A stretch of DNA of 64,000 nucleotides, taken from contig JBBELK010000380.1 of assembly GCA_037783545.1 (NCBI GenBank), forward strand, positions 372,001-436,000. The letters are read 5' to 3'. Shown here one piece after another: positions 23,250 through 57,116 of this stretch. Each line of letters opens with the position of its first letter. The stretch's first letter is position 1. Under the pieces are notes generated by a model. That model was not told the origin of the DNA and did not search any database. It saw nothing but the letters and a program-made list of their open reading frames with translations. This DNA is from Henricia sp. BOLD:AAB3569 (lineage: Eukaryota > Echinodermata > Asteroidea > Spinulosida > Echinasteridae). The position numbers and the translations under genes are program-made.

Positions 23250-25263
23250 GTTACCAGACACATCCTTATATAATTTATCGTGTTGTCTGAGTTTGGGAAG
23301 AAAAATCTGTGTTATTTCATGTTCGTTGAATTTGTCGTGACCAGTTGATTAGTTTACGGCGGTTAATCAAAACTGCAAGACGGGGAGCAATGAATAAAGC
23401 GAGAACAATTATGTCGACATCCATGTCAGACAGAACTTACCCTGATTTGTTTCAACAACACACGGGGGGAAAACGTGTTTTGGATTATTTACCAGTCAAA
23501 AATGTCAATTAAACCGACGTGTTTTGAATGTGTCCGATAGGAGGCCTAACACCACCATTCACACAGTTTAAACTTTATCATACTCAATTCACAGACATGC
23601 ATTTTCTACAAGTAGAATTGTGGTAACGTATCTGTTATGTTGTTAAAACACGTTTAACAAGGTCTGACTTTGTGTTCGTATTTCTAGAAAGGTAGATGAG
23701 TTAAAGATCACCCATGCCTTGTTTGATATTCTGGAGCTATTACACTTTACGATTTTGACCATATTTGTTTTTTTCATTGTTGTCAATATTTCGCCAATTG
23801 TCACTCCCAACTTGAGCACTTTAGCGGAGAATGGGCCACATGTACCTTCAATCACACAGGGGGATGAAACTACATGTACATGTATTTTGTAATGGTTTAC
23901 CAAATTAAAAATTGTTTCACCAAATTGTACGAATTTGACCCCAAAAAAAGTTTAACAAAAAGGAAGAGGGAGCAGTATAGATTTAGTATAGATGTACTTT
24001 TTTTTGCAGATGGCCACTGTATCTTAGAGGACTTTTGGTATCAAGTTTTGATATACAAGTACATGTACATGTACATATACATGTACATGTAGTACATACA
24101 TGTACTACATGTACATGTAATGTTGGACACAATATCACATACAGATTCATCTGCTATTTCATTCATATTAGCCAAGGTACATTGCACATCTGTATTTCAG
24201 TTTAGAAATTGTCTCCCTCACTGTACATGTATAAGTGCTATTTCTTTATTTTAAAATAAAAAGAACATTAAGAGACTTGTGTCATGGTTTGCGCATGCTC
24301 AGAAGAATGTAGTGCAACTTTGTTACACAACGCCATCGTGTATACTCGGCACATGCTGCATGTGCAGTATACATGTACAATGAGTGTTTACAATACGTAC
24401 ATGTAGAATTCAACTGCATAGTACATCGTGTTGTGCGCCTTCGTTCGATTTCGCGCAGTGTCTGGAAAAAATCAGTAGAGCGGTAGCGGCCACGGTGTCT
24501 ATTTCCATCGACAGAAGATTTGCTGTCAGGACAGATCAGGCCTCTTTTTACTTTACTAAGGTAATACTTGCACAAATTAACAAAACTGAAATAATGAAGA
24601 GTTTATTTTATGGATATTTGGCCACAGATCAGAGCAGGATCCATTTGTTTCTTGTGTAGACCATGGACTATGCTATGGAGCTACATGTACATGTAGGCCT
24701 ACATGTATGTGTATAGACAAACCATTGTATTGTTCATTATGTTCACATATAATGAACAACATTGTTCATTGTAGGACACTAGCCAGAACAGTTTTATTTA
24801 GTCTTAGATAATTATTTTACCTACAAATATCACTAGGTATCAGTGTCAGGAAGTGTAAATTTGACATAAAAATTAAGCAGTTAGTTTAGCTTAAATTTAG
24901 CAGAAAAAAAGATGCTGTGATACATGTATCAGGATAGCCAAGCACTCTCAATCGGTCATGTCCTTGGTTTTGCATGTGTACTGTGATCTTCTCATAACAC
25001 CTCTGATTTATGCCTAAATTCATTTTGTAGGACTGAGTTTTATTTTTTAGCAATTAACATGATTAATGCATTCCTTTCAGCTGCTCATAGAGCAAGGAAC
25101 ATGCAGTTTTATCTTGTTAGGTTTACTCAACAAAACTCAAAAGCTTCACATTTTTCTAAGTTGTCCCTGCGGTACATAAATTAGCTTGCAAAATTTCAAA
25201 AATTCCAATCCCGGCAAGTTTGGGGCAAGCTTGCTGGCGAGCGGTAGGTACGCATGTACAGTA
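23250..25263. other. Host DNA without recognised gene
   Basis: Contains a dense ACATGTAC/TACATGTA block at 24055-24120. An exon-like segment ending in TTTACTTTACTAAG followed by GTAATA near 24560 lacks a recognisable family and is not called. Confidence 0.45.
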
Positions 25264-25543
25264 GGCAAGCTTGCGGCAAGCTTGCGGCAAGCTTGCGGCA
25301 AGCTTGCGGCAAGCTTGCGGCAAGCTTGCGGCAAGCTTGCGGCAAGCTTGCGGCAAGCTTACTGCGAGCTTGCGGCAAGCTTACTGCGAGCTTGCGGCAA
25401 GCTTGCTTGCGGCAAGCTATACGGCAAGCTTGCTGCGAGCTTGCTGCAAGCTTATGGCAAGCTTGCGGCGAGCTTATGGCAAGCTTGCGGCAAGCTTGCG
25501 GCAAGCTTATGGCAAGCTTGCGGCAAGCTTGCAGCAAGCTTGC
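25264..25543. repeat. Palindromic 11-bp minisatellite (GGCAAGCTTGC)n
   Basis: About 25 copies of an 11-bp unit whose core GCAAGCTTGC is its own reverse complement. The first part is perfect; later copies vary (TTATGGC, TTACTGC, TTGCTGC). Because the unit is self-complementary and not a multiple of three, long repetitive ORFs (KLAASLRQACG-type) appear in most frames of both strands; these are artefacts of the repeat. Such an array can fold into chained hairpins. Confidence 0.92.
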
Positions 25544-25593
25544 CCTCATTTGCATTTTTGGAACCTTGCAAGCTTGCAGACAAGCTTTTGGCA

Positions 25594-25700
25594 ATTTGAC
25601 AAAGCTGAAATTTCTTCGGATAAGTTTGTTGATGTCTTTCTTTTGATTTATAATGGTTTTATTCGCAGAATCGCTCAAAAACAGATCATCTACAGGGCCT
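25594..25700 (+). repeat. Truncated copy of a TTAAAGG-ended dispersed element
   Basis: Shares GACAAAGCTGAAATTTCTTC, ATGTCTTTCTTTTGATTTAT and CAGAATCGCTCAAAAACAGA with 58310-58430 (inverted) and, less closely, with 38290-38381. Only the right third of the element is present. Confidence 0.75.
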
Positions 25701-27759: not shown

Positions 27760-28773
27760 TGTACGTACCGGTACATGTACAGTCAGAAGTATTAAATACA
27801 AAGTACTGTATGTATAAAACATGCAACCAAGTGTTAAAACTGGTGTGCTAGCTTTGTAACAGTCTTTACTAAATTCTTGATTTTGTGGAATTCCTCACGT
27901 GCATGCAGTACTAGTACTTAAAACATACATGTGTAGCTTGTACATGTACATGTACACCTTGCAATGGTTCGGGTAGACCTGTTTACCATTTTGGGTGATG
28001 ATGGTAGTGGTGTACGTACATGCCCAATGGGGCCACGTACTGCCCATTGACAATTGGATGCCATCTGTGACCAGAAATCCAAGTAAAAAGGATCTTTTTT
28101 TACGATTGGGCACTGTACTTGCGTATCGTGATTAGGGTATCAAAAACTCAGAAAAACTGAATAAAGGGTACTTTAAAAAAATCTTTCCCCAGATACATGT
28201 ACATGTAATTAGGGTCCTTGAGAGGACTTGCAATGGGATCATAAAATGTTTCATTTTATATTAATGGTGTTTTATTATGATCATTATTGCAGCCCAATTA
28301 ATAGGCTGAATTGCACATGATCTAACAAACTGTCACATTACAAAAAAATAAATTAACATAAAATATACATTAAATAACAACAAGTATTAGGGCCAAATTA
28401 ATTAATTAGACTTACAATATATTTAGGATACACAGGATAAATTACACACGATCAACCACCACCCACCTCCCACCCCAACCCCCCACTGGTCTCTATCCAT
28501 TGTTATTTAGAATCTTAATAAAGGAGGGAATTGGACTAGTTTTATACCACTCAGTTTTACACATAATATATTTAAATGGTTTTTGTCTCAATTAGTTAAT
28601 TGGCTGCATGGCTTCAAAATGGGCAGAAAATACAATCAATGTGCACTGTACCGGTATGTGTGCAGTAGGTCTGCATGTGTGAATTCACCAGTGCATTTTG
28701 CGGAACGTCTTTAATTGTACTTGTTAAGCATGTTAAGGGGTGCATTTTTGGACTGTAGAAATTACGTGTTTAG
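27760..28773. other. Host DNA before the gypsy insertion
   Basis: No gene recognised. Contains pyrimidine/purine-rich and AT-rich stretches; the last bases TTAG (28770-28773) are the left copy of the gypsy target duplication. Confidence 0.5.
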
Positions 28774-29374
28774 TGTAGTGAACTGGGTTTTCGTGAAGAA
28801 ATACTTGTTTTGGCACGGCCGACAGCAAAAGTTAGTTGAATGATTCTGCCAACCAAAAGAGGGCGCACTTTAACGGTGGCGCGCACTAACACATAACTTT
28901 AGACTGTGATAAGGCATAAGTTCTGGTGTTATTTTATTTAGGAAAAAGTTACGATTAAGCCTTATCAACATGGAGCAATAAGTTTGTCATTTTTAAATAA
29001 TCAATGGAGATGTTTTAATGTAAGATTTGCTATCCTGTAACGTTTTGGGTGAGATTAACCATTGTATTAGGGCAAGGCGGATTGAGAACAGTTGGGTTAA
29101 GTGACCGGAACTATATTCCGTAGCGTTCTCTCTGGACGTAGCCGCCAAAGTTGTTGGTTGTGTCTCGACAACCATGACATAATTGTCACTATTTTCGGGA
29201 TGTGAGACGGCTTGGAACTCCACTCTCTCACCTAAAATGATGATCAAAGATTAGAGAACAGATCAGTTGGTTTTCTTCTGGATGAGAAAATAAATGGAAT
29301 ATTCCTGATTTGTCGTGCAACCCAACCAAGGTGTCATGCCTCTTGTCTTCGGACTCTAAAACCATAACACTACA
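28774..29374 (+). repeat. 5' LTR (601 bp, intron-less form)
   Basis: Matches the 3' LTR along its whole length except for lack of a 6-bp CCACTT insertion and of the 319-bp splice-like segment. The point where that segment is missing is 29269/29270, reading CAGTTG/GTTTTC. Confidence 0.95.
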
Positions 29375-29377
29375 AAT

Positions 29378-29395
29378 TGGTAACACGGATGGGGT
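29378..29395 (+). promoter_or_regulatory. Putative primer-binding site
   Basis: TGGTAACACGGATGGGG begins 3 bp after the LTR end; TGG pairs with the CCA end of a tRNA. Which tRNA it matches could not be decided. Confidence 0.55.
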
Positions 29396-29899
29396 TGCTA
29401 CATTACATGACTGGTTGTCAACGTACTACCAAGGATTCGAGTTCCGGACGGGGAGTGGGAACCCAGTGAATGACGGCACGGAGATGGAATCCTGGTGCGG
29501 ACCTCAAGTTGGAGTTGCAGTCTTTACCGGCCAGTGATCAGCTGCTCAGCGCAGTGCAAGTGGAGAATACCCGGTGGTGCTGTCACACCCGTTTGGATCT
29601 ACGGACTTGAGGTGCACACGTATATGTGCATGTGTTTTCAAAGAACAGTGGTAATTGACCAGCGCTGTAAGGTGGGACTATGTTATTCTTTTATATTGAT
29701 AGTGAAGCCATCTAGTACCAATAGCACACAATGATGTAGAGCATGCTAGTTTTTATTCAAGAAGAAAACCAACTGATCCTGTTGAAGCATTTAATTTTGA
29801 AATTGTGAAATGTATATGGGCATATAGTCTCCATAGGTGTTTATGATTTTTGATTGTACATGTAAGGTTACGATTTGAGTCACAGTATTTTGACCCGCA

Positions 29900-31060
29900 A
29901 TGGCCACGCCCGAGGCTGACCTAGTGACCCGCTTAGTAGCAGGGCTTACTGATGCACTTCGAAAAGATAAGCCAAAGTCTGTTGTTCAGAGGCCTTTAAA
30001 GTTAAGTAAGTTTTACGGGAGGCCTAGTAAACCTGGAGACCCGACCATTATTGAATGGCTTGAAGATGCAGAAGTTTATTTGCAACAGTGCAATATCCCA
30101 AAGGCGGATAAGGCTAAAGTGCTTGTTCACCACCTAGCAGGTGTAGCCCGTGATGAGGTAAAATGCCACAAAGAAAATGTGACGGGTAATTGTGAGGCAT
30201 TGAAAAAACTTCTTCGGCACCAGTTTGGTGCTGAGGAGTCGGTACAGTCACTTCAAAAGGCCCTTTTTGAAAGACATCAGAAAGATGACGAATCCCTTAT
30301 GGATTTTTCGCGCTCACTCATGCGAATGCATGATCGAATTTTAGAAGTTGCCACAGAAGCAGAAAAAAATAACTTAAATGGGTTGCGCGATAGGATGCTA
30401 ATTGGGCAGTTTGTGGCAGGGGCGAGAAACCAGGGTGTTCGGCTTGAGCTAAGGCGGTTAGAGTTGGCTAATCAAGGTCAAAGTTTTGCTAACATGAGGG
30501 ACGCGGCTCGCGAGTTATTCAGGGATCTTGAGGGAAATTCCCGGGGAACTCGACGTGGTGCAAGTGTGCACCACTTAGTCACTGAAAATGTTTCAGACAG
30601 TGATGAGTCAGTTATGGATAACAGCATAAATGTTAACCAAGTAGTTAACCGGTCTTCAGAGGAGACACAGTGGCAAAAAATGTTGCAGCAGCAACAAGAA
30701 ATTCTTGAATGTGTGCGAAGCCAACAAGAAACTCTATGTAAACAACAGGAACAAATTACTACGCTTATGCAGGCAGTAGTAAGGGAACGTGGGGTTCTGG
30801 GACAACAAAGTATGCATGAAAGTGCAGGAAGGCAGCAGTATGCGGGCAAGCCGCCTGTGCGCTGCTTTTATTGCAAACGACCTGGTCACATGAAGCATGA
30901 ATGTAGACTTCGTATTGCGCATGAGAAAGCGAATGGTAGTGCCCCAGAGGGGCAGGGGCAGGCTAAAGCGGGCACGCACAACAAAGGACGGGAAACCAGT
31001 AATCTCTGCCACTGTAGGCCAAGTGGCAGAGGAACAATCTGGAAAGGCCTCACGTGTTGA
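29900..31060 (+). CDS. gag: Gypsy Gag
   Basis: A 386-aa protein. The N-terminal half is a retrotransposon gag region ([33 protein letters not shown]; a helical stretch with [13 protein letters not shown]), followed by a Gln-rich helix (about residues 255-295) and a CCHC zinc knuckle C-x2-C-x4-H-x4-C at residues 322-335 ([14 protein letters not shown]). It packages the RNA in virus-like particles. The pol frame begins inside its 3' end, in the +1 frame. Confidence 0.92.
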
Positions 31061-33989
31061 AGGGGTAACAGATAAGTCTTTTGATGATGTATTAACCAGT
31101 TTAGTAAAGGAGAGCCCCAAGGCTCAAATTACTTTAGCTGGGGTATCAGTAACATGTGTCCTTGACACAGGGGCGGAGACATCTCTGATTAGTGCCTCTT
31201 TTTATAGGGATCACCTGGCAGGGAAGCTAAGTGAAGTGCAGCCTTTAGGTACTTACCTGCGTGTGTATGGGGCAGGGAATAGTGAGGTACCAATTGAGGG
31301 GTACATACGTGCTCCATTGGTAGTACATAACCAGACTGTAGATGCACATTTTCTTGTAGTCAAAGAGTTTCCCAGAAGTGAGGCCAGTAATCGCAAAGGT
31401 TTTCCAGTTTTGTTAGGGTGCAATGTCCTTCATAAGCTTAAGGGGGTGGTAGTTGATTCAAAGCAACCAGACGCAGATGCTTGGGCCACAGCTATCCAGT
31501 GGTATAGTCTGACTAAAAATCCAGTAGATGAGGAGTCACAAAGGGCAAGTAAGGTTGTACAGGAACCAGTGGGTGCTCGTACAGGTAGAAATACCATACA
31601 TCTACTGCCTAGAGAAGTGCGTAGTGTAACGTGTTATGTCCCAGTTCATGTAAGTGTTCTCGATGGACAGACAGTTCTGGTTGAGAGTCTTTCTAGCTTC
31701 GCAGCTAGTGGTTGTCATTCCCCCATGCAAGTGCAGGCCAGTAACTTAGATGGTAATTGTCGCATTTATGATTCATGTACCGTTGTTAGTGGCAGGACCG
31801 TAAGTGTGTTGGTTGCAAATATGGGAATGCAGACAATAGAACTGTGTCCACATACAAAGTTAGCGTATGTAACTGAGGTGTCTTGTAAGACAGATATTGC
31901 TCTTGAGACGGCAGATGACTGCCTCCACGTTTCAGTGAACCAGATCCTCGCAGAATCTGTTGGCCATGCCCAGCTAGGTTCTCATGTAGAGTCCACTGAG
32001 CCAGACATTGAAATGGGGGACACTACCGAGTCACAGACAAGGAAGTTGTATGTGTTTGAGGATGGGTCAGAATATCAGCTTCCCCTTGGAATAAACCTGG
32101 ATTTGTGTACAGAATTATGCAAGAAAGACCAGGACAAGATCGTAAGACTTATCCAAAAGCATGATGAGGTGTTCTCAAAGAACTCTGTGGATTTGGGACT
32201 TTGTGATAAGGTACCCCACAGAATTGACACAACTGATGAAAGACCAGTTAACCAACCATACAGACGGATCCCTCCACAGCACCTAGGCGAAGTTAGGGAA
32301 TTAATTCAGAAGTTCCTTGATCAAGGTATAGTTAGGAAGAGTAACAGTCCCTATGCGAGCCCTATCGTGTTGGTCCAGAAAAAGGACGGGTCGCTGCGAA
32401 TCTGTGTGGATTATAGAAGGCTTAATGCGAAGACAGTACGAAACTCCTTTCCATTGCCTCGTATTGAGGAATCACTGGAGGCGCTCCGGGGTGCAAAATA
32501 CTTTTCGTCGTTAGATTTGGCCCACGGGTATCACCAAGTTGTGATGGACCCAGAATCAGTGAGCAAAACGGCATTCCGAGTTCCTTTTGGGTTGTTCGAA
32601 TACACCCGAATGCCATTTGGGCTAGCAAATGCACCCGGAACGTTCCAGAGAGTAATGGAAATGTGTCTCGGGGACATGAACCTGTCTGAGTTACTGATCT
32701 ACTTAGATGATACTCTTATATATTCTGCTACAGTACAGGAACACATTGATAGGCTAGATAAGGTATTGACCAGGCTAGCGGATTTTGGACTTAAGATCAA
32801 GGGTGAAAAGTGTCAACTGTTTCGTAGCCAGGTGTTATACTTAGGACATGTGGTGAGCCCGGAAGGTGTGTCGGTGGATGATGATAAAGTCCAGCGCATC
32901 AAGGATTGGCCAGTACCCAAAACAGCTGCAGAGTTGCGCTCGTTTCTTGGCTTGGCGGGTTATTACCGTCGGTTTGTGAACGGGTTTTCAAAAATAGCGG
33001 TACCGTTGCATGCTCTTGTGCCTTCAGTGGCTAAGGGCAATGCAAGATCTAAGCCGCCGCCATTTTGTTGGAATTCTGATGCGCAACAGGCTTTTGATAT
33101 TTTAAAGCATACCCTGACACAAGCACCAGTGCTTGCCTACCCGGACTTTGCTAGGCCATTTGTCTTGGAGATAGACGCCTCTTTGCGGGGCTTAGGAGCA
33201 TGTTTAGCTCAGGATGACAAGGATGGCAAAAGACATCCAGTTGCATTTGCCAGTCGTGGGCTCCGAGGAGCAGAATCTAGGTACCCTGATCTCAGTTCCT
33301 TTAAATTGGAACTCCTGGCCCTTAAATGGGCTGTAGTAGATAAATTTAGGGACTATCTACTTGGGATGCCATTCACAGTACTGACGGATCATAACCCCTT
33401 GTCCCATCTCAAGACGGCAAAATTAGGTGCGTGTGAAATGCGCTGGATAGCACAACTCGCTGCTTTCGCGTTTGATGTGAAATTTAGAACAGGGGCTAGT
33501 AATCGCTGTGCTGATGCACTGAGTCGGTACCCAGGTCACTCTCCAGCGGAGAAAGTTCAGGATGTATTGCAGTGCAGGGTTCACTCAACAGTGGTCCCAT
33601 TGCGGGGTGTTAGTGTTTGCGCGGTGTCAGCGGCTCAAGAGCCAGGGGCTAGATCTCCGGAGGTAAACAGCCAATCAGGAATTTTCCCATCTTGGACACC
33701 AGAACAGTTGTCCGCCCTGCAAAGGGCTGACCCCGTATTAAAGTGTATCTGGGAACGTTTGGAGAAGGGCTGGAAACCAGGTGAAGCCTTTAAGACCGTG
33801 CATAAGGAGCCAGCAGAACTCAAATTGTGGCTGTGGCAGTGGCCAAGGTTCCTCGTAAAGGATGGTGTTTTGCATCGCCGAGTTAGGGACCCGTTACATG
33901 GTGATCTAGATCAGATACTAATGCCCAAGAGCTTACAACAAAGGATGTTAGAGGGTTGTCACGATTCCTGGGGACATCAGGGGTTGTAA
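30897..33989 (+). CDS. pol: Gypsy Pol: protease, reverse transcriptase, RNase H, start of integrase
   Basis: 1030 codons in the +1 frame relative to gag, overlapping it by 164 bp, so expression would need a frameshift during translation; the listed start is nominal. The protease has [10 protein letters not shown] (codons at 31164 onward). The RT has [46 protein letters not shown] and YLDDTLIY (near 32700). RNase H has [17 protein letters not shown] and [10 protein letters not shown]. The frame stops at 33989 just after the first integrase zinc-binding histidines; the integrase core continues in another frame. Confidence 0.93.
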
Positions 33990-35314
33990 AGACTTGTTCC
34001 CTACTGAGGAGACGTGTGTTTTGGCCCAAGATGGCAGCGGCAGTGCGTCGCCATATCAGTCATTGTGAACAGTGTGTCATTGCCAAGGCATCAGAGCCTC
34101 AGGCAAGAGCGCCCATGCGCCACCTCTTGGCTTTTCGTCCACTTGAAGTGTTAGCCATAGATTTTGTGAAAGTGGATAGGGGGTCTGGGGGCTACGAGGA
34201 CGTCCTCGTTATGACCGATGTTTACACAAAATTTGTCCAGGCTTTTCCATGTAGGAATCAACTTGCAGTAACTGTAGCCAAGGTGTTAAGGGATCAGTGG
34301 TTCTCAAAGTTCGGTATACCATGCAGGTTACACAGTGACCAAGGTAGAAATTTCGAAGGAGATGTCGTGCGAGAGTTGTGTGCCCTGTACGGCATGAAAA
34401 AGACAAGAACAACTCCATATCACCCTGAGGGTAACGGTCAGGCAGAGCGTTTTAATCGCACGATGTTTGGTCTAATTAAGTCTATGGATGAGAGAGACAG
34501 GCGGAGGTGGCCTGATCTTTTACAGCACCTTGTGTTTGTGTATAACGCTACCCCGCATTGTACGACGGGAGTCGCTCCCTACGTGCTTATGTTCGGCAGA
34601 GAACCTTCGTTCCCTCTTGACCAAATGTTAGGGAGAGTAAATAATGATTGGGACCAAGATTTTGTCAGAGAACAGTCTTTTCTTCTCTCTAGAGCTAGTG
34701 ATTTAGTGGCAGACAGAGTAGCAAAAACCTGCAACCGCAATACGGCTTCTCATGATAGTAAAGTAAGACCTAGTAAGCCTATCCAGGTTAGTTCCCATGT
34801 TCTACTCCGGAAACGCGCGTTCAAGGGACGCCACAAACTGTCTGATGCCTTTGAAAGAGACCCCTATGTTGTCGTTTGGGCAAATGAACACAATGATGTA
34901 TTTCGCATCCGTCCATTAAAGGGAGGTACAGAGAAAGTTGTGAACCGGAAACACCTGCGATTAGACCCTTTAGCAGCAAGTGGCTCAGAAAATGAGATTG
35001 AGAGGTCAGACGAAGATTCTGATTGGGAATTAATGTGTACTGGGCATTCACAAGGTCAGCCTCTGGATCAAAATGCACAGAGGGTAAGCAGTGAAGAAGT
35101 AGGGGAGCCCCCTACAATCATGGGCTCAACGCCACTGTACACAAGAAAGTCTCAAAGAGTTACAAAGGGCCGACACAGCAATCCATTCAGATTTGCTTTT
35201 CTTCTGGTAGTGGGATTGTCTAGTGGATTGCCGATGGTCAGGAAGCTGCCTTGTTGGAAAGACTTGGGGTATCCAGTTTCCACAATGGCACACCTGATCG
35301 GAGCGCACCACTAG
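33956..35314 (+). pseudogene. pol: Gypsy Pol, integrase part in a shifted frame
   Basis: The frame lacks an ATG and continues the integrase from the preceding ORF, so a frame break lies at about 33975-33990, next to a G run. It shows the Cys pair of the zinc-binding domain (HCEQCVIAK), the catalytic residues in LAIDFVKV, HSDQGRNFEG and HPEGNGQAERFNR (D, D, E), the GVAPYVLMFGREP block and a basic C-terminal domain. If the break is real, this copy cannot make integrase in one piece; a sequence error in the G run is the alternative. Confidence 0.88.
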
Positions 35315-35465
35315 ACACTCCTGCATGCTGCCAGTAAACTGACCTTTATTCGGTCGTTGCGAGTAGAAAATACGGGCTTGTTTGTGATTTTTATACTGGC
35401 GGGAGAGTGGTTTTTCACAGTTTCCTCCCCTAGTGTTAAAGTGTATTTTAAAGGAGAAAAAAAAA

Positions 35466-36047
35466 ATGAGTTTTGTCCTTTTTGGACACAGTTTTGTTAA
35501 GCGCTTGCAGAAGAAGCGAAGTTTTCATTTCCAAATTGAGTTACAGCGTCGCGTAGTACCTGTAACATGTGTTGGTGAGGGTGGTCTTACCCTCGGTAGA
35601 ATCCAGGCGAGGCCTAGAAAATACTTTCAGTCCTTAGAACAAGCCAACCCATCGGTTTTGATCTTGGATTTAGGTACTAACGACTTATGTTCTAAAGATA
35701 TGGATTCTGCCCAAGTATACTCTTTGGTATGCAATTTTGTACATGAGTTACCCAAGAGGGGAATTAATCCAGACGTTGTAGTCTTTCTGTCTGTTATGCC
35801 TCGAACAGGAGGGTTACGAGGTGGCCAGGTGTCACTCGAAGAATTTAACAGTCGGGTGGAACAATTCAATAATTTTATCCGACAAGCGACCTTTGTAGAA
35901 GATCGATGGTGGTTATGGGAGCACCGGGGACTACGGAGTTCCCGTTATAACCTTGACGGGGTTCACCTGAATGCAGCCGGAATGTCGCAGTACGAAAGAA
36001 CACTGCGACAAGTTGTTAAGTTCTTTGAGGGGCGCATTAGGGCATAA
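35466..36047 (+). CDS. SGNH/GDSL-hydrolase-like ORF in the gypsy element
   Basis: A 193-aa protein from the ATG at 35466 (an in-frame Met at 35433 would add a Lys-rich 11 residues). It shows the four SGNH blocks: block I FGHS with Ser9, block II GEGG (Gly39/40), block III GTND with Asn72, and block V DGVH with Asp164 and His167. The order and spacing fit small SGNH esterase domains. It lies between pol and the 3' LTR, where an env gene would sit, in the same strand, with intact frame. Esterase-like domains are known in some LINE proteins; here a substrate such as lipid or acylated sugar is pure guess. Capture from the host or from another retroelement is possible. Confidence 0.78.
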   Translation: MSFVLFGHSFVKRLQKKRSFHFQIELQRRVVPVTCVGEGGLTLGRIQARPRKYFQSLEQANPSVLILDLGTNDLCSKDMDSAQVYSLVCNFVHELPKRGINPDVVVFLSVMPRTGGLRGGQVSLEEFNSRVEQFNNFIRQATFVEDRWWLWEHRGLRSSRYNLDGVHLNAAGMSQYERTLRQVVKFFEGRIRA

Positions 36048-36251: not shown

Positions 36252-36263
36252 AGTAGGGGAGAT
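36252..36263 (+). promoter_or_regulatory. Polypurine tract
   Basis: AGTAGGGGAGAT directly precedes the TG start of the 3' LTR and is absent before the 5' LTR; it would prime plus-strand synthesis. Confidence 0.75.
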
Positions 36264-37189
36264 TGTAGTGAACTGGGTTTTCGTGAAGAAATACTTGTTT
36301 TGGCACGGCCGACAGCAAAAGTTAGTTGAATGATTCTGCCAACCAAAAGAGGGCGCACTTCCACTTTAACGGTGGCGCGCACTAACACATAACTTTAGAC
36401 TGTGATAAGGCATAAGTTCTGGTGTTATTTTATTTAGGAAAAAGTTACGATTAAGCCTTATCAACATGGAGCAATAAGTTTGTCATTTTTAAATAATCAA
36501 TGGAGATGTTTTAATGTAAGATTTGCTATCCTGTAACGTTTTGGGTGAGATTAACCATTGTATTAGGGCAAGGCGGATTGAGAACAGTTGGGTTAAGTGA
36601 CCGGAACTATATTCCGTAGCGTTCTCTCTGGACGTAGCCGCCAAAGTTGTTGGTTGTGTCTCGACAACCATGACATAATTGTCACTATTTTCGGGATGTG
36701 AGACGGCTTGGAACTCCACTCTCTCACCTAAAATGATGATCAAAGATTAGAGAACAGATCAGTTGGTGAGTAGATTTGTATTTTAGTTCGTACTTTGGGT
36801 AAATTGGACAAAACAACTGAGAGACAACACACGAGGTTAAATGTCATTGACATCCGGGTTTGTGTGTATATTAATGTACTTGTATCACGTGGGTGTATTC
36901 CACGAGTGTCGTTTAAGCACACGACAGGGTATTATTTAATGTGCATGAGGCCACATACATGTAAATTTGATTAGTGAAGTACAGTGTACATAAATTATTT
37001 TGTTGCTTATTTAGGAATTGGATTGACCAGTAAAGCTTTAAATTAATGGTTAAATGTTATTTCTAAATATTGGTTTTTCTTCAGGTTTTCTTCTGGATGA
37101 GAAAATAAATGGAATAGTCCTGATTTGTCGTGCAACCCAACCAAGGTGTCATGCCTCTTGTCTTCGGACTCTAAAACCATAACACTACA
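36264..37189 (+). repeat. 3' LTR (926 bp, intron-containing form)
   Basis: Same ends as the 5' LTR. The excess length of 325 bp is explained exactly by a 6-bp CCACTT insertion and the 319-bp segment at 36766-37084. Confidence 0.95.
36766..37084 (+). other. 319-bp intron-like segment inside the 3' LTR
   Basis: It starts GTGAGT after CAGTTG and ends TTTTTCTTCAG before GTTTTC, with a CTAAAT branch-like word about 25 bp from the end. The 5' LTR lacks exactly this segment. A 3-bp GGT at both edges leaves the boundary ambiguous by 3 bp, but the GT...AG reading has strong consensus at both sites. The inside is AT-rich, non-coding, and has one ACATGTA. It is best read as an intron of the LTR leader; an inserted element with a 3-bp duplication is the alternative. 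Confidence 0.7.
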
Positions 37190-37439
37190 TTAGGGTACGT
37201 AGTTTTGAAAACCTCTGGTCTGCATGCATGGCATATCCACTTGTTAATGTGCAGTGTTCCCCCTGGGTGTACATGTACACATGGGAGCAGGGTGTTATTA
37301 CATGTATGCTTGAACTGACATGTATGATGTACTGGTATGTACATATGGTACTTGGTGTAAATATTCATGGTGCTGGAAAAGGTATTACACAAAAGGACAC
37401 TTGAAGACCAAGACATTGGGTGGATTGCAATAAAAAAAA

Positions 37440-37790
37440 GTTAAGATGTCTTAAAGCTAGGAGTGTCATGTTTAGATTTTTCCCGAAAATGGAATTTGTT
37501 AGAACTAACCTAACAATCATATAAAATACATGTACATGTACCTCCCCAAAATACTATCAATGGGAAGAAAACAGGAAATTTTCAATCTCCAATTTGGGTG
37601 TGCATGGAAGCAGGTTAGTGTGCATGGTCATCACTGCACTGCTAGCTTTATGGAACGGATTTAACTTAGTTTACAAAGCATTGATGTTCTTTTTGACAAT
37701 ATCCTTAAAAAATACATATGATGATACATGTATGGTATCAACATCTCAACACCCATGGGAAAATGGGGGCTAAAAAGTGTGATCAGAACA
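37440..37790 (-). repeat. Dispersed repeat, partner of 18650-18960
   Basis: Inverted relative to the copy at 18650. It shares CCTAACAATCATATAAAAT, CCTCCCCAAAATACTATC, GGGAAGAAAACAGGAAATTT and CATCTCAACACCCATGGGAA with that copy. No ORF. Confidence 0.65.
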
Positions 37791-53498: not shown

Positions 53499-55499
53499 TA
53501 AGGAATTTTGGTATAATTGCCATTGGACAAAAACTCCCACGGGTCCTAATTAGTATATTTCAAAGATGGCCGCCATCAGAATTCATAGCCACCTTTTCAG
53601 CTGATTTAGACCATGGGGCATAGGTGATTATCTTTCAGTTTCGTGGCGCAGTTCTCAGAACTATGTGGAAATAGCAAATTCTATTAGTCAATGTCAAGTG
53701 AATTACAAAAACCAAAATCCACAAACCCGAAAATCACCAGATTTTTATATTTTTACATTTAAATTTTTCTTTCAAAAATAGCGCCCTCTGTTGGCCAATT
53801 TTGGAGAACTGTGTGCATTTCCTATGGAGGTGGCCATGGTACAGTGTATATAGCCAAATTGACTGCTGTGTGCAGTTTATTAGCTTTTGCTATTAGAGAA
53901 AATTCATGTAATGGCTTCTAGTGTCACATAATGCTAAACAATTATTTAAATCATCAAGGCAAAACCTATACTCGAAATAATTTTTTTGAGGTTTCACATA
54001 GTCTTGCTTTATTCCATTGCACTTCAGTGTGCCAACATCTCATTTGTTTTGCTGAATAGATTTGTGATCTGTGGCCAATTCTGAGATTGGAATACAGTGA
54101 AACTTGTATACAGTGGCCAACCTCGGGACTGCAAAAAAACCTGGCCACTGGCCACATTATAGAGGTTGCTTATGCATTGTACGCGTGGCCACTATAAGCA
54201 GGAGGCTTGTTTATCAAGGTGGGCTTATTAACAAGTTTCACTGTTACAGTATTATTAAACGCATTATACATATAAATTAAAGTTAATTTCCAATATGAAC
54301 ATTTTTGTGGATCTTCAAATTACATTTTACTAATCTGTTAGCTGTCCATGTCTACTCTACTTTTCAGTAGTATATTGTGAATCATCTCAAACTGTCACTA
54401 TGATGGAAATTGGGCACACACACTGATAAACAAAAATGGGCAAATTTTGCCCAACTTTGTTTCAAATATCAACATACCCATCTTTGGGGTGCAAAATACC
54501 CAACTGGTGTTGGGTAACAGCCTTATACCCAATTTTTGGTTAAATTTATTCAACCAATATTTCGGTGAATGTGCATATCCAATTATTGGTTATAAGTTAA
54601 TTATCCAACGTTTGGGTAAATGTGCATGGCCAATTGTTGGTTTAATTCAATCATCCAAGGTTTGGGTAAGATTGCATGTGTGTGAAACTTTGAGAAACGT
54701 TAAGAAATGCCTGTAGCCTATCAAGTTGCTGGATTTTCGCGCATGCTTACTTAGCGTTACTTTTTAACACCAGTAAAATGTACACCAAGATACTAAATAG
54801 GATTATAAAAATCAGGATATACATCTGGAACAACTCCATCATGAGAAGTGTGGAAAGAACACGTACATAAACATGCGCTCCTAAGCATTTATTTCAACAG
54901 CCTTCTGGTCAAATTCAGTCCATACACTATACATTGCTGTTTATTATTTGCAAGCCGAGGAAACTGAACCAAAATTCAAGCAAAAGGCCCATTTCATTCA
55001 TCTTAACATACATAATACACACAAACCTTTTCTACAATATGTTGTCACACTGTGTTTCGGGTTTATTATTTGCAAGTCTGTGATATTAAAATTACTAACA
55101 CCACAATCCAAGCAAATGACGTCTCTGCTGCCCAACACGTTGGATATACAGCAAGCTTTTTAGCAGTATGTTAACGAAGTGGTGTGGTTTTTAATATTTG
55201 GGAGACAAATCACCAAAATCCAAGCAAATTAGACCTGGGTTGCTCAACACATTGGGTAATTATACAGCAAATATTTTCTGCAGCATGTTGGTCACATCAT
55301 GAACATGGCTTACCCAAAAGTCGAGCATATTTGGCCCGAGATACCCAACAGGCATGTTGGGCATATACGAAAAGATTTCTGCTCTATATGTTGAATTTAA
55401 CCAACAATTGTATGCGGTTGTTCCCAGGTGTGCGGTTGCTATAATGCGTCCTGCTTTGTGTTAAAAATTCCCCAATAACTGGAGATAAATGTCATAAGT

Positions 55500-55940
55500 G
55501 TATAATTTGCTCAGCATTTTAATACTTTCAGCACGCGCTATAATAAATGGACACCCCTTGACCAACGGAACTTGGGATGAGCGAAAAATCGTACGGGCCG
55601 TATAGAACTTGGATGGTTTACCCATAAAGAACATTTTCTGCATAATGATCCAACAAATGTCCTAATGAAATTCTCCAACTTTATTTTACCCATCATATTT
55701 TGTACAGTATACTTTGAAGCGCCCACTCTGGTCTTCACAATCTCCAACAGATGGAGAAAATATTGTTTGTCTATATAATATATGCTCAACCTTTTAATAC
55801 TTTCAGCAAGAGGTAAAAAAAAACCACCAATAAATAGCCGCTGTTTCCCCAATTTACAGAACTTTGCATGTAACCAACGTTGGTGTCCTGGATGTTTTAC
55901 CCAACGGAGCATTTTCTGCATATGTTGAGGAAATATGGCC
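55500..55940. repeat. Diverged tandem pair of about 279 bp inside the foldback element
   Basis: The words TTTTAATACTTTCAGCA and, further on, ACCCA(T/A)-AA-ATTTTCTGCATA recur about 279 bp apart (55517 and 55796 for the first). The copies are old and carry only fragmentary ORFs with similar reading (AESIKxLS). Confidence 0.6.
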
Positions 55941-56055
55941 TAACAAACGTCAAAATGTTTACAGTGCACCATTGTTAATAACACGCGTAGAATGCATAAG
56001 CAACCTCTATGTCAGTGGCCAGGTTTTTTTTGCAGTCCCGAGGTTGGCCACTATA

Positions 56056-56590
56056 TGGGTCATTCCATAAATACGGGACCCAGTGTCCCCCTTTACGTCG
56101 TGACACTTCCGGAGTTGATTTTTATACATACCGGGCTTCAGAGAACAGTTACCTTCAGCATATGAACAATATATATATTGGCCTCTTAAATCGAACAACA
56201 CTGGTGCGATCTTCTAAATGCACGTGTGACATTTTGAAATTTATATTGAAGAATTATTGAAATTTCGCTCATAATATGATTTTAATTGATAAGGTATAGG
56301 TTCCACAGGTATAAGGTAAAACCAGAAGCTACCTTTTCCAGAAAGAACCTGGTCAAAAAGAATTTTAAAATGCCTTGGTGTCCCCACTTACGTCGTTAAA
56401 CAATTTTCTCGAATATTATCAAAACTATGACACCATGGCATGTCTAAATGTTTGGAAATTGTTTCAAATATCCTACACTATCAGAAATTGCACGGAAATT
56501 TATTCAAAATAGTTTGGTAACTTGAAAAGGCCATTTTTAAAAATGCATCAAAATGTCACACTTTGGCCCCCATATTTATGGAATGACCCA
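56056..56590. mobile_element. 535-bp MITE nested in the right arm
   Basis: TGGGTCATTCCATAAATA at the left end faces its complement at 56573-56590. The segment has no counterpart in the left arm 53606-54187, which shows it inserted after the large inverted repeat had formed. Near each end lies a CCCCxTTACGTCGT-type word. Confidence 0.85.
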
Positions 56591-57116
56591 CATAGGCCTA
56601 CAAGTTTCACTGTATTCCAATCTCAGAATTAACCACAGATCACAAATCTATTCAGCAAAACAAATGAGATGTTGGCACAGTGAAGTGCAATGGAATAAAG
56701 CAAGACTATGTGAAACCTCAAAAAGTTTGTTTCGAGTATACGTTGACTCTTATGATTTAAATTATTGTTTAGCATTATGTGACACTAGAAGCGCAAGCCA
56801 TTACATGAATTTTCTCTAATAGCAAAAGCTAATAAACTGCACACAGCAGTCAATTTGGCTATATACACTGTACCATGGCCACCTCCATAGGAAATGCACA
56901 CAGTTCTCCAAAATTGGCCAACAGAGGGCGCTATTTTTGAAAGAAAAATTTAAATGTAAAAATATAAAAATCTGGTGATTTTCGGGTTTGTGGATTTTGG
57001 TTTTTGTAATTCACTTGACATTGACTAATAGAATTTGCTATTTCCACATAGTTCTGAGAGGTGCGCCACGAAAATCACTTTCTGAACACATTTTGCTGCC
57101 TTGCCCCATGGTCTAA

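What the first reader, a model, noticed from the sequence alone, without database searches (positions are those of the whole stretch)
36766..37084. A 319-bp intron present in the 3' LTR but precisely missing from the 5' LTR of one young gypsy element
The 3' LTR carries a segment that begins GTGAGT and ends TTTTTCTTCAG; the 5' LTR is joined at exactly that point (29269/29270, CAGTTG/GTTTTC). The length difference of the LTRs (926 vs 601) is fully explained by these 319 bp plus a 6-bp duplication, and the rest is nearly identical. The simplest reading is that one LTR descends from a spliced RNA and the other from an unspliced one. Standard reverse transcription makes both LTRs from one template, so asymmetry points to template switching in R/U5, recombination between copies, or a fresh intron gain. 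An LTR-borne intron that is lost and kept in the same insertion would be a marker of how the element handles spliced genomic RNA.
Basis: partly seen in the sequence, partly recalled or inferred. Interest (0 to 1): 0.9.

Follow-up and report, generated by a model that had tools for sequence, protein, structure and literature searches.

The report
Retrotransposon keeping an intron in its LTR
A jumping element carries what looks like a removable intron inside its end repeats; copies read here mostly keep it, a few have lost it exactly, and this one young copy has one end of each kind, which offers a way to see how spliced and unspliced RNA become one DNA copy.

Summary
The element is one clean Ty3/gypsy insertion (4-bp TSD TTAG; an empty-site haplotype is in the same assembly). 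In its genome 19 LTRs carry the 319-bp GT..AG segment at one LTR position and 6 lack it, all six joined at CAGTTG/GTTTTC. By insertion: 12 intron-bearing, 2 intronless, 1 asymmetric (this one). So it is an ancestral LTR intron, precisely lost more than once or lost once and spread by recombination; not a gain, not an independent mobile element. The 6 bp is a deletion in the 5' LTR, not a duplication. Splicing is inferred; no RNA data exist here. Ordinary template switching cannot make unequal LTRs; I favour an intronless plus-strand strong-stop DNA (5' LTR) joined to an intron-bearing minus strand (3' LTR). Gene conversion after integration is the main rival. New: the leader holds a 19-nt complement centred on the spliced junction (29760-29778), seen in 9 of 9 leaders read; its full stem is predicted to be stable only without the intron (2 of 2 against 0 of 5 leaders). 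It may be a splice-state RNA switch, but is not conserved above background.

The parts
28770..28773 (+). target site duplication TTAG, left
   Evidence: the empty site on C616 has TTAG once
28774..29374 (+). 5' LTR, 601 bp, without the intron; private 6-bp deletion near 28866 and private T at 29302
29261..29279 (+). exon-exon junction region GATCAGTTG/GTTTTCTTCT (junction 29269/29270)
29289..29294 (+). AATAAA poly(A) signal, 20 nt into the second exon (candidate end of R)
   Evidence: function inferred
29375..29899 (+). untranslated leader between 5' LTR and gag; candidate primer binding site at its start (TGGTAACACGG from 29378, tRNA not identified)
29760..29778 (-). anti-junction: 19-nt perfect reverse complement of the intronless junction, centred on the exon boundary
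29900..31060 (+). gag ORF (PNMA-like capsid, CCHC zinc knuckle)
30897..33989 (+). pol ORF with reverse transcriptase and RNase H
33956..35314 (+). integrase ORF in another frame (H2C2 zinc binding, rve core)
35433..36047 (+). third ORF with a GDSL/SGNH esterase domain
36255..36262 (+). polypurine tract AGGGGAGA just before the 3' LTR
   Evidence: function inferred
36264..37189 (+). 3' LTR, 926 bp, with the intron
36766..37084 (+). 319-bp GT..AG intron (GTGAGT ... TTTTTCTTCAG)
37190..37193 (+). target site duplication TTAG, right

Best explanation
The 319-bp segment is a spliceosomal-type intron that belongs ancestrally to the LTR of this Ty3/gypsy family. It lies just upstream of the poly(A) signal, probably in the transcribed R region. 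Usually the unspliced RNA is the template, so 12 of 15 scorable insertions carry the intron; now and then a spliced RNA is copied and the intron is lost exactly. In the window's insertion both states met during one reverse transcription. The minus strand, which gives the 3' LTR, kept the intron; the plus-strand strong-stop DNA, which gives the 5' LTR, lacked it. Two routes would do this. (a) Intermolecular second strand transfer: strong-stop DNA from a spliced template joins a minus strand made from an unspliced one. (b) Loop skipping: intron-bearing strong-stop DNA anneals to the spliced 3' R of the acceptor RNA, the intron loops out, and plus-strand synthesis bridges the loop. Shown: the three LTR states, exact junctions, clean insertion, polarity. 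Inferred: splicing, the R position, and that the mixing happened before integration.
For: Exact GT-AG ends; 5'ss GTGAGTAG in 18 of 19 intron-bearing LTRs (the other has GC) and CAG/GTT at the 3' end in 19 of 19. All six intronless LTRs share one junction to the base. Intronless and intron-bearing lineages interleave: C380 5' LTR groups with C380 3' and C763, while C1015/C306 and C168 group near C8/C928 (19 of 21 attempted rows parsed, short branches, local supports 0.75-0.97 with some lower). 4 of 5 two-LTR insertions are symmetric (C684=C809, C763, C1052 with intron; C1015=C306 without), as expected when one template makes both LTRs. C380 has one TSD and an empty haplotype, so it is not a join of two insertions. 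Its LTR exons are identical at all ungapped first-exon sites (0 of 495) with 1 difference in the second exon; they carry none of the 5 to 10 first-exon variants of the other intronless LTRs.
Against: No RNA, so splicing is unproven. Only one asymmetric insertion exists, so polarity cannot be tested. Second strand transfer has been reported as intramolecular in retroviruses (PMC12789967, passages), so route (a) would be an exception, and route (b) is my own construction. Four-gamete conflicts between neighbouring LTR sites (306-361, 408-419, 430-454) show recombination or homoplasy in the family, which gives conversion room. Intron state against site 454 also shows all four combinations, so one loss plus recombination is not excluded.
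Confidence: 0.55

Rival explanations
1. Gene conversion after integration: the 5' LTR was overwritten around the junction by an intronless LTR or by spliced cDNA of the family; the original insertion had the intron in both LTRs.
For: Intronless LTRs exist as donors (C1015, C306, C168), and LTR sites show four-gamete conflicts.
Against: The tract would have to be short: nearest mismatch to a C1015 donor 58 columns upstream and 28 nt downstream of the junction, to C306 25 upstream, to C168 44 upstream. No donor variant was carried over, and the 6-bp deletion and T are in no donor read.
Confidence: 0.25
2. Assembly artefact: a stretch of another copy was placed in the 5' LTR, or 319 bp dropped out in consensus building.
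For: Young near-identical repeats are hard to assemble; the reads could not be seen.
Against: The junction is exact, TSDs match, flanking exon variants are those of this element and not of any intronless copy read, and exact intronless junctions occur in three other contigs.
Confidence: 0.06
3. Chance DNA deletion in the 5' LTR between GGT microhomologies.
For: A 3-bp GGT repeat flanks the segment, and the same LTR has another small deletion between CACTT repeats.
Against: The same breakpoints occur in all six intronless LTRs read, and both ends match strong splice sites.
Confidence: 0.04
4. Fresh gain of an introner-like segment by the 3' LTR.
For: A 3-bp GGT could be read as a target duplication.
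Against: The segment sits at the same LTR position in 19 LTRs up to about 9% diverged over the intron, including the most divergent lineages; only 1 of 23 matches, a 158-bp fragment on C370, has no LTR sequence beside it.
Confidence: 0.01

Closest known systems
Proviruses made from spliced pregenomes (foamy virus deletion proviruses; MLV spliced retroelements); recalled, not read
   Same: A spliced viral RNA is copied and the intron is missing exactly from the new DNA
   Different: Those introns lie in internal genes; here the intron lies inside the LTR, most copies keep it, and one insertion has one LTR of each state
Retroelements that keep introns, such as Penelope-like elements; recalled, not read
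   Same: Introns persist although the element moves through RNA
   Different: Not LTR elements of the gypsy kind; no unequal pair of ends
Splice donors in R of foamy viruses and HTLV; recalled, not read
   Same: A donor site within transcribed LTR sequence
   Different: Their acceptors lie far downstream; here donor and acceptor both lie in one LTR
Ty1 CYC5:CYC3 (14 nt) and nt 1-7:264-270 pairings (PMC5454406, passages)
   Same: Leader sequence pairs with sequence present at the RNA ends and promotes reverse transcription
   Different: Here the pairing is centred on a splice junction, so it is contiguous only in the intronless RNA; function untested

Membership tests
Ty3/gypsy LTR retrotransposon | reverse transcriptase and RNase H followed by integrase | tested here: met
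   Pfam RVT_1, RNase H, Integrase_H2C2, rve in that order; RT piece matches Ty3-G chain 7q5b at 1.2e-67
Ty3/gypsy LTR retrotransposon | LTRs TG..CA with short target duplication | tested here: met
   TGTAGT..ACTACA with TTAG on both sides, single TTAG on the empty haplotype
Ty3/gypsy LTR retrotransposon | primer binding site matching a host tRNA | not tested
   TGGTAACACGG follows the LTR at 29378 but no host tRNA set was compared; ARAGORN found none in the window
Spliceosomal intron | GT..AG ends with consensus donor and pyrimidine tract, kept across copies | tested here: met
   18 of 19 donors GTGAGTAG (1 GC), 19 of 19 acceptors CAG
Spliceosomal intron | exact removal to one junction | tested here: met
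   6 of 6 intronless LTRs, as DNA
Spliceosomal intron | spliced RNA observed | not testable with these tools
   no RNA-seq available
Introner or other independent mobile element | copies outside the LTR with their own target duplications | tested here: not met
   22 of 23 genome matches make up 19 LTR copies; the remaining one is a 158-bp internal fragment
Tf1-type self-priming element | complement of the RNA 5' end directly after the 5' LTR | tested here: not met
   best match of the reverse complement of 29375-29405 within the element is 8 nt; the anti-junction lies 385 nt past the LTR
Ty1-like RNA cyclisation element | leader complement whose pairing is needed for reverse transcription | tested here: inconclusive
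   complement present in 9 of 9 leaders and stem predicted, but conservation is not above background and no functional data

The most novel reading that the evidence does not exclude
The LTR intron and the leader anti-junction form a splice-state RNA switch. Only after splicing does the leader find a contiguous 19-nt partner at the exon junction, closing a domain that holds U5 and the primer site; this would set spliced RNA apart (translation) from unspliced RNA (template) and so keep the intron in the family in spite of retrotransposition. When the sorting fails, exact intron loss follows, and the window's insertion is a rare case caught with both states in one DNA.
Probability: 0.25. Interest if true: 0.88.

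Novelty: new variant of a known kind. Interest (0 to 1): 0.7.

Why it matters
An intron placed in the LTR is a natural tag for the template: it tells which LTR came from spliced RNA. Whether the second strand transfer can be intermolecular, and how retroelements keep introns that splicing should remove, become countable questions in this family. The leader complement would make splice state readable by the RNA's own structure.

Tried and rejected
Independent mobile element and fresh gain: rejected by the family survey. C8 and C928 looked like further asymmetric elements (intron in the 3' LTR only) but are 5'-truncated, starting at gag nt 947 and leader nt 53, without any 5' LTR. Tf1-like self-priming: no match after the LTR. 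Internal inverted repeats of the intron: only one 11-nt pair. A clear mosaic origin of C380 (my note: LTR like C763, inside like C928) was dropped: many of the sites that set C763 apart on the 3' side are found in C763 alone, so they do not show descent of C380 from C928-like RNA. Special conservation of the anti-junction: not shown, 1 of 19 columns varies against 47 of 525 in the leader, and 317 of 506 windows of 19 are as conserved. Inverted repeats of 17 nt or more also occur elsewhere in the window, 97 seed positions within 1.5 kb, three of them the anti-junction's, so length alone is not unusual in this genome; the position on the splice junction is. Rows dropped: C763_mid and C622 were not parsed for the tree, and C58, C1052 3', C429 and C479 were not put in; C162 ends before the junction and C370 has only an intron piece, so neither is scored. 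Viral contigs held no relative. Rfam and tRNA scans of the window gave nothing.

Searches not made: protein database (switched off); junction pattern, gag DNA and gag protein in the own genome were asked repeatedly and never answered (gag DNA 79, 82, 84, 88, 91; pattern 93, 95, 99, 101, 103, 105, 107, 110; protein 111, 113, 115, 117, 119, 121, 123, 125, 127, 128, 130); leader search once, not answered.

Full report
Check. The two LTRs are 601 and 926 bp and align end to end with three differences: 319 bp, 6 bp and one base. The 319 bp begin GTGAGT and end TTTTTCTTCAG. Both motifs are rare in the window (47 and 6 sites over both strands). Breakpoints are ambiguous by 3 bp (GGT). The 6 bp are a deletion in the 5' LTR: the 17 other LTRs aligned there keep them (12 rows, 5).

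The insertion. TTAG flanks the element on both sides. A contig of the same assembly, C616, carries the region without the element and with TTAG once; a query made of the two host flanks aligns through the site, at 82% overall with gaps and nearly letter for letter at the site itself. C616 may be the other haplotype or a paralogous copy; either way C380 is one clean insertion. Its LTR exons differ by 0 of 495 ungapped sites in the first exon and 1 site in the second, so it is young.

The family. A search of the own genome (740.7 Mb, 2104 contigs) with the intron gave 23 matches, all first-look candidates scored. They resolve into 19 intron-bearing LTRs: 17 near full length, plus C479 and C459 interrupted by other sequence. 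One orphan fragment (C370, 158 bp) has no recognisable LTR sequence beside it. A search with the 601-bp LTR gave 46 matches in 28 scored candidates and six intronless LTRs: C380 5', C1015 twice, C306 twice, C168. The tool calls its repeat counts lower bounds. C684 and C809 share short flanks, as do C1015 and C306, so I count each pair as one insertion seen on two haplotypes. By insertion: 12 with the intron, 2 without, 1 asymmetric. Two-LTR insertions: 5, of which 4 are symmetric.

Intron or not. Donor GTGAGTAG stands in 18 of 19 LTRs and GC replaces GT in one (C622); the acceptor is CAG/GTT in 19 of 19. The six intronless LTRs share one exact junction. The exon tree places the C380 LTRs with C763 and the other intronless LTRs near C8 and C928 (19 of 21 rows tried were parsed, branches are short). 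So the intron is ancestral and was lost exactly at least twice, or once with spread by recombination; four-gamete conflicts in the LTR keep the second reading open. Splicing is the obvious agent but no RNA was seen.

Where it lies. AATAAA stands 20 nt into the second exon, so the intron ends just before the poly(A) signal. If the start site lies upstream of the donor, the intron is in R; the start site is unknown. Independently of the start, the copy at the RNA's 3' end has its donor within the transcript.

Why the asymmetry is strange. In the established scheme (recalled) plus-strand strong-stop DNA is copied from the minus strand's own LTR, so both LTRs of one DNA derive from one segment; switching templates during minus-strand synthesis changes both alike. 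Unequal LTRs need an intermolecular second transfer, a skip in plus-strand strong-stop synthesis, or later conversion. A review reports the second transfer as intramolecular in retroviral studies (PMC12789967, passages only). I favour an origin during reverse transcription (0.55) over conversion (0.25), because known intronless donors would have to leave a tract shorter than 58 columns upstream and 28 nt downstream (C1015), 25 upstream (C306), or 44 upstream (C168), with none of their variants. One case cannot decide.

The leader anti-junction. The longest inverted repeat in the element is 19 nt between 29261-29279 and 29760-29778: 0 of 300 dinucleotide shuffles of the element reach 19 (maximum 17), and 500 shuffles of LTR plus leader reach at most 14. 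It is centred on the exon junction, so it is contiguous only in the intronless form. It is present in 9 of 9 leaders read, from 6 insertions; 3 of 9 have A to G at 29771, which turns an A-U pair into G-U. Predicted duplex with the junction is -41 kcal/mol, against -23.5 with the donor side and -25.0 with the acceptor side of the 3' LTR. In folds of natural leaders, both halves pair with probability near 1 in 2 of 2 intronless ones (end pairs lower); of 5 intron-bearing ones, 2 show both halves at about 0.4-0.95, 2 only the first half, and 1 neither strongly. Against a special role: conservation equals the leader's background, there is a single G-U change, and similar inverted repeats occur elsewhere in the window. 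Because intron-bearing lineages carry it too, it did not arise with the C380 loss. It is either a fossil copied from an intronless RNA or a working element comparable to Ty1's CYC5:CYC3 (PMC5454406, passages only).

Literature. Answered searches listed no paper whose title or the start of its abstract describes an intron wholly inside an LTR or an element with one spliced and one unspliced LTR; bodies were not read beyond the passages named, and subscription papers are mostly missing from that library. The relatives named from memory are marked so.

Verdict. A real and unusual family trait with one striking asymmetric copy. New variant of a known kind. Interest 0.7.

Noticed in passing
window 35433-36047: A third ORF with a GDSL/SGNH esterase domain follows the integrase of this gypsy element.
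   Followed up: no
window 33956-33989: The pol and integrase ORFs meet in different frames inside the integrase zinc finger, so this copy may be broken there or the assembly has an error.
   Followed up: no
L002, L003, L004 (C763:5501-24307): Tandem LTR-internal-LTR-internal-LTR arrangement, all three LTRs with the intron, GTAC on both outer sides.
   Followed up: partly
L006/L024/L030 (C8) and L007/L025 (C928): Elements with a 3' LTR but cut off at the 5' side, starting within gag and within the leader.
   Followed up: partly
L008 (C622): Intron with a GC instead of GT donor.
   Followed up: no
window 37469-37700: Dispersed repeat next to the element; the flank query gave 2778 first-look candidates in the genome, 40 scored.
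   Followed up: no
window 53639-57073: Inverted repeat arms of 279 nt at 99% and 146 nt at 95%, 2.5-2.9 kb apart.
   Followed up: no
window 25208-25598: Tandem repeat with an 11-bp period.
   Followed up: no
window 37075-37096: The intron's end and the second exon's start are near-identical 11-mers in tandem, TTTTCTTCAGG and TTTTCTTCTGG.
   Followed up: no
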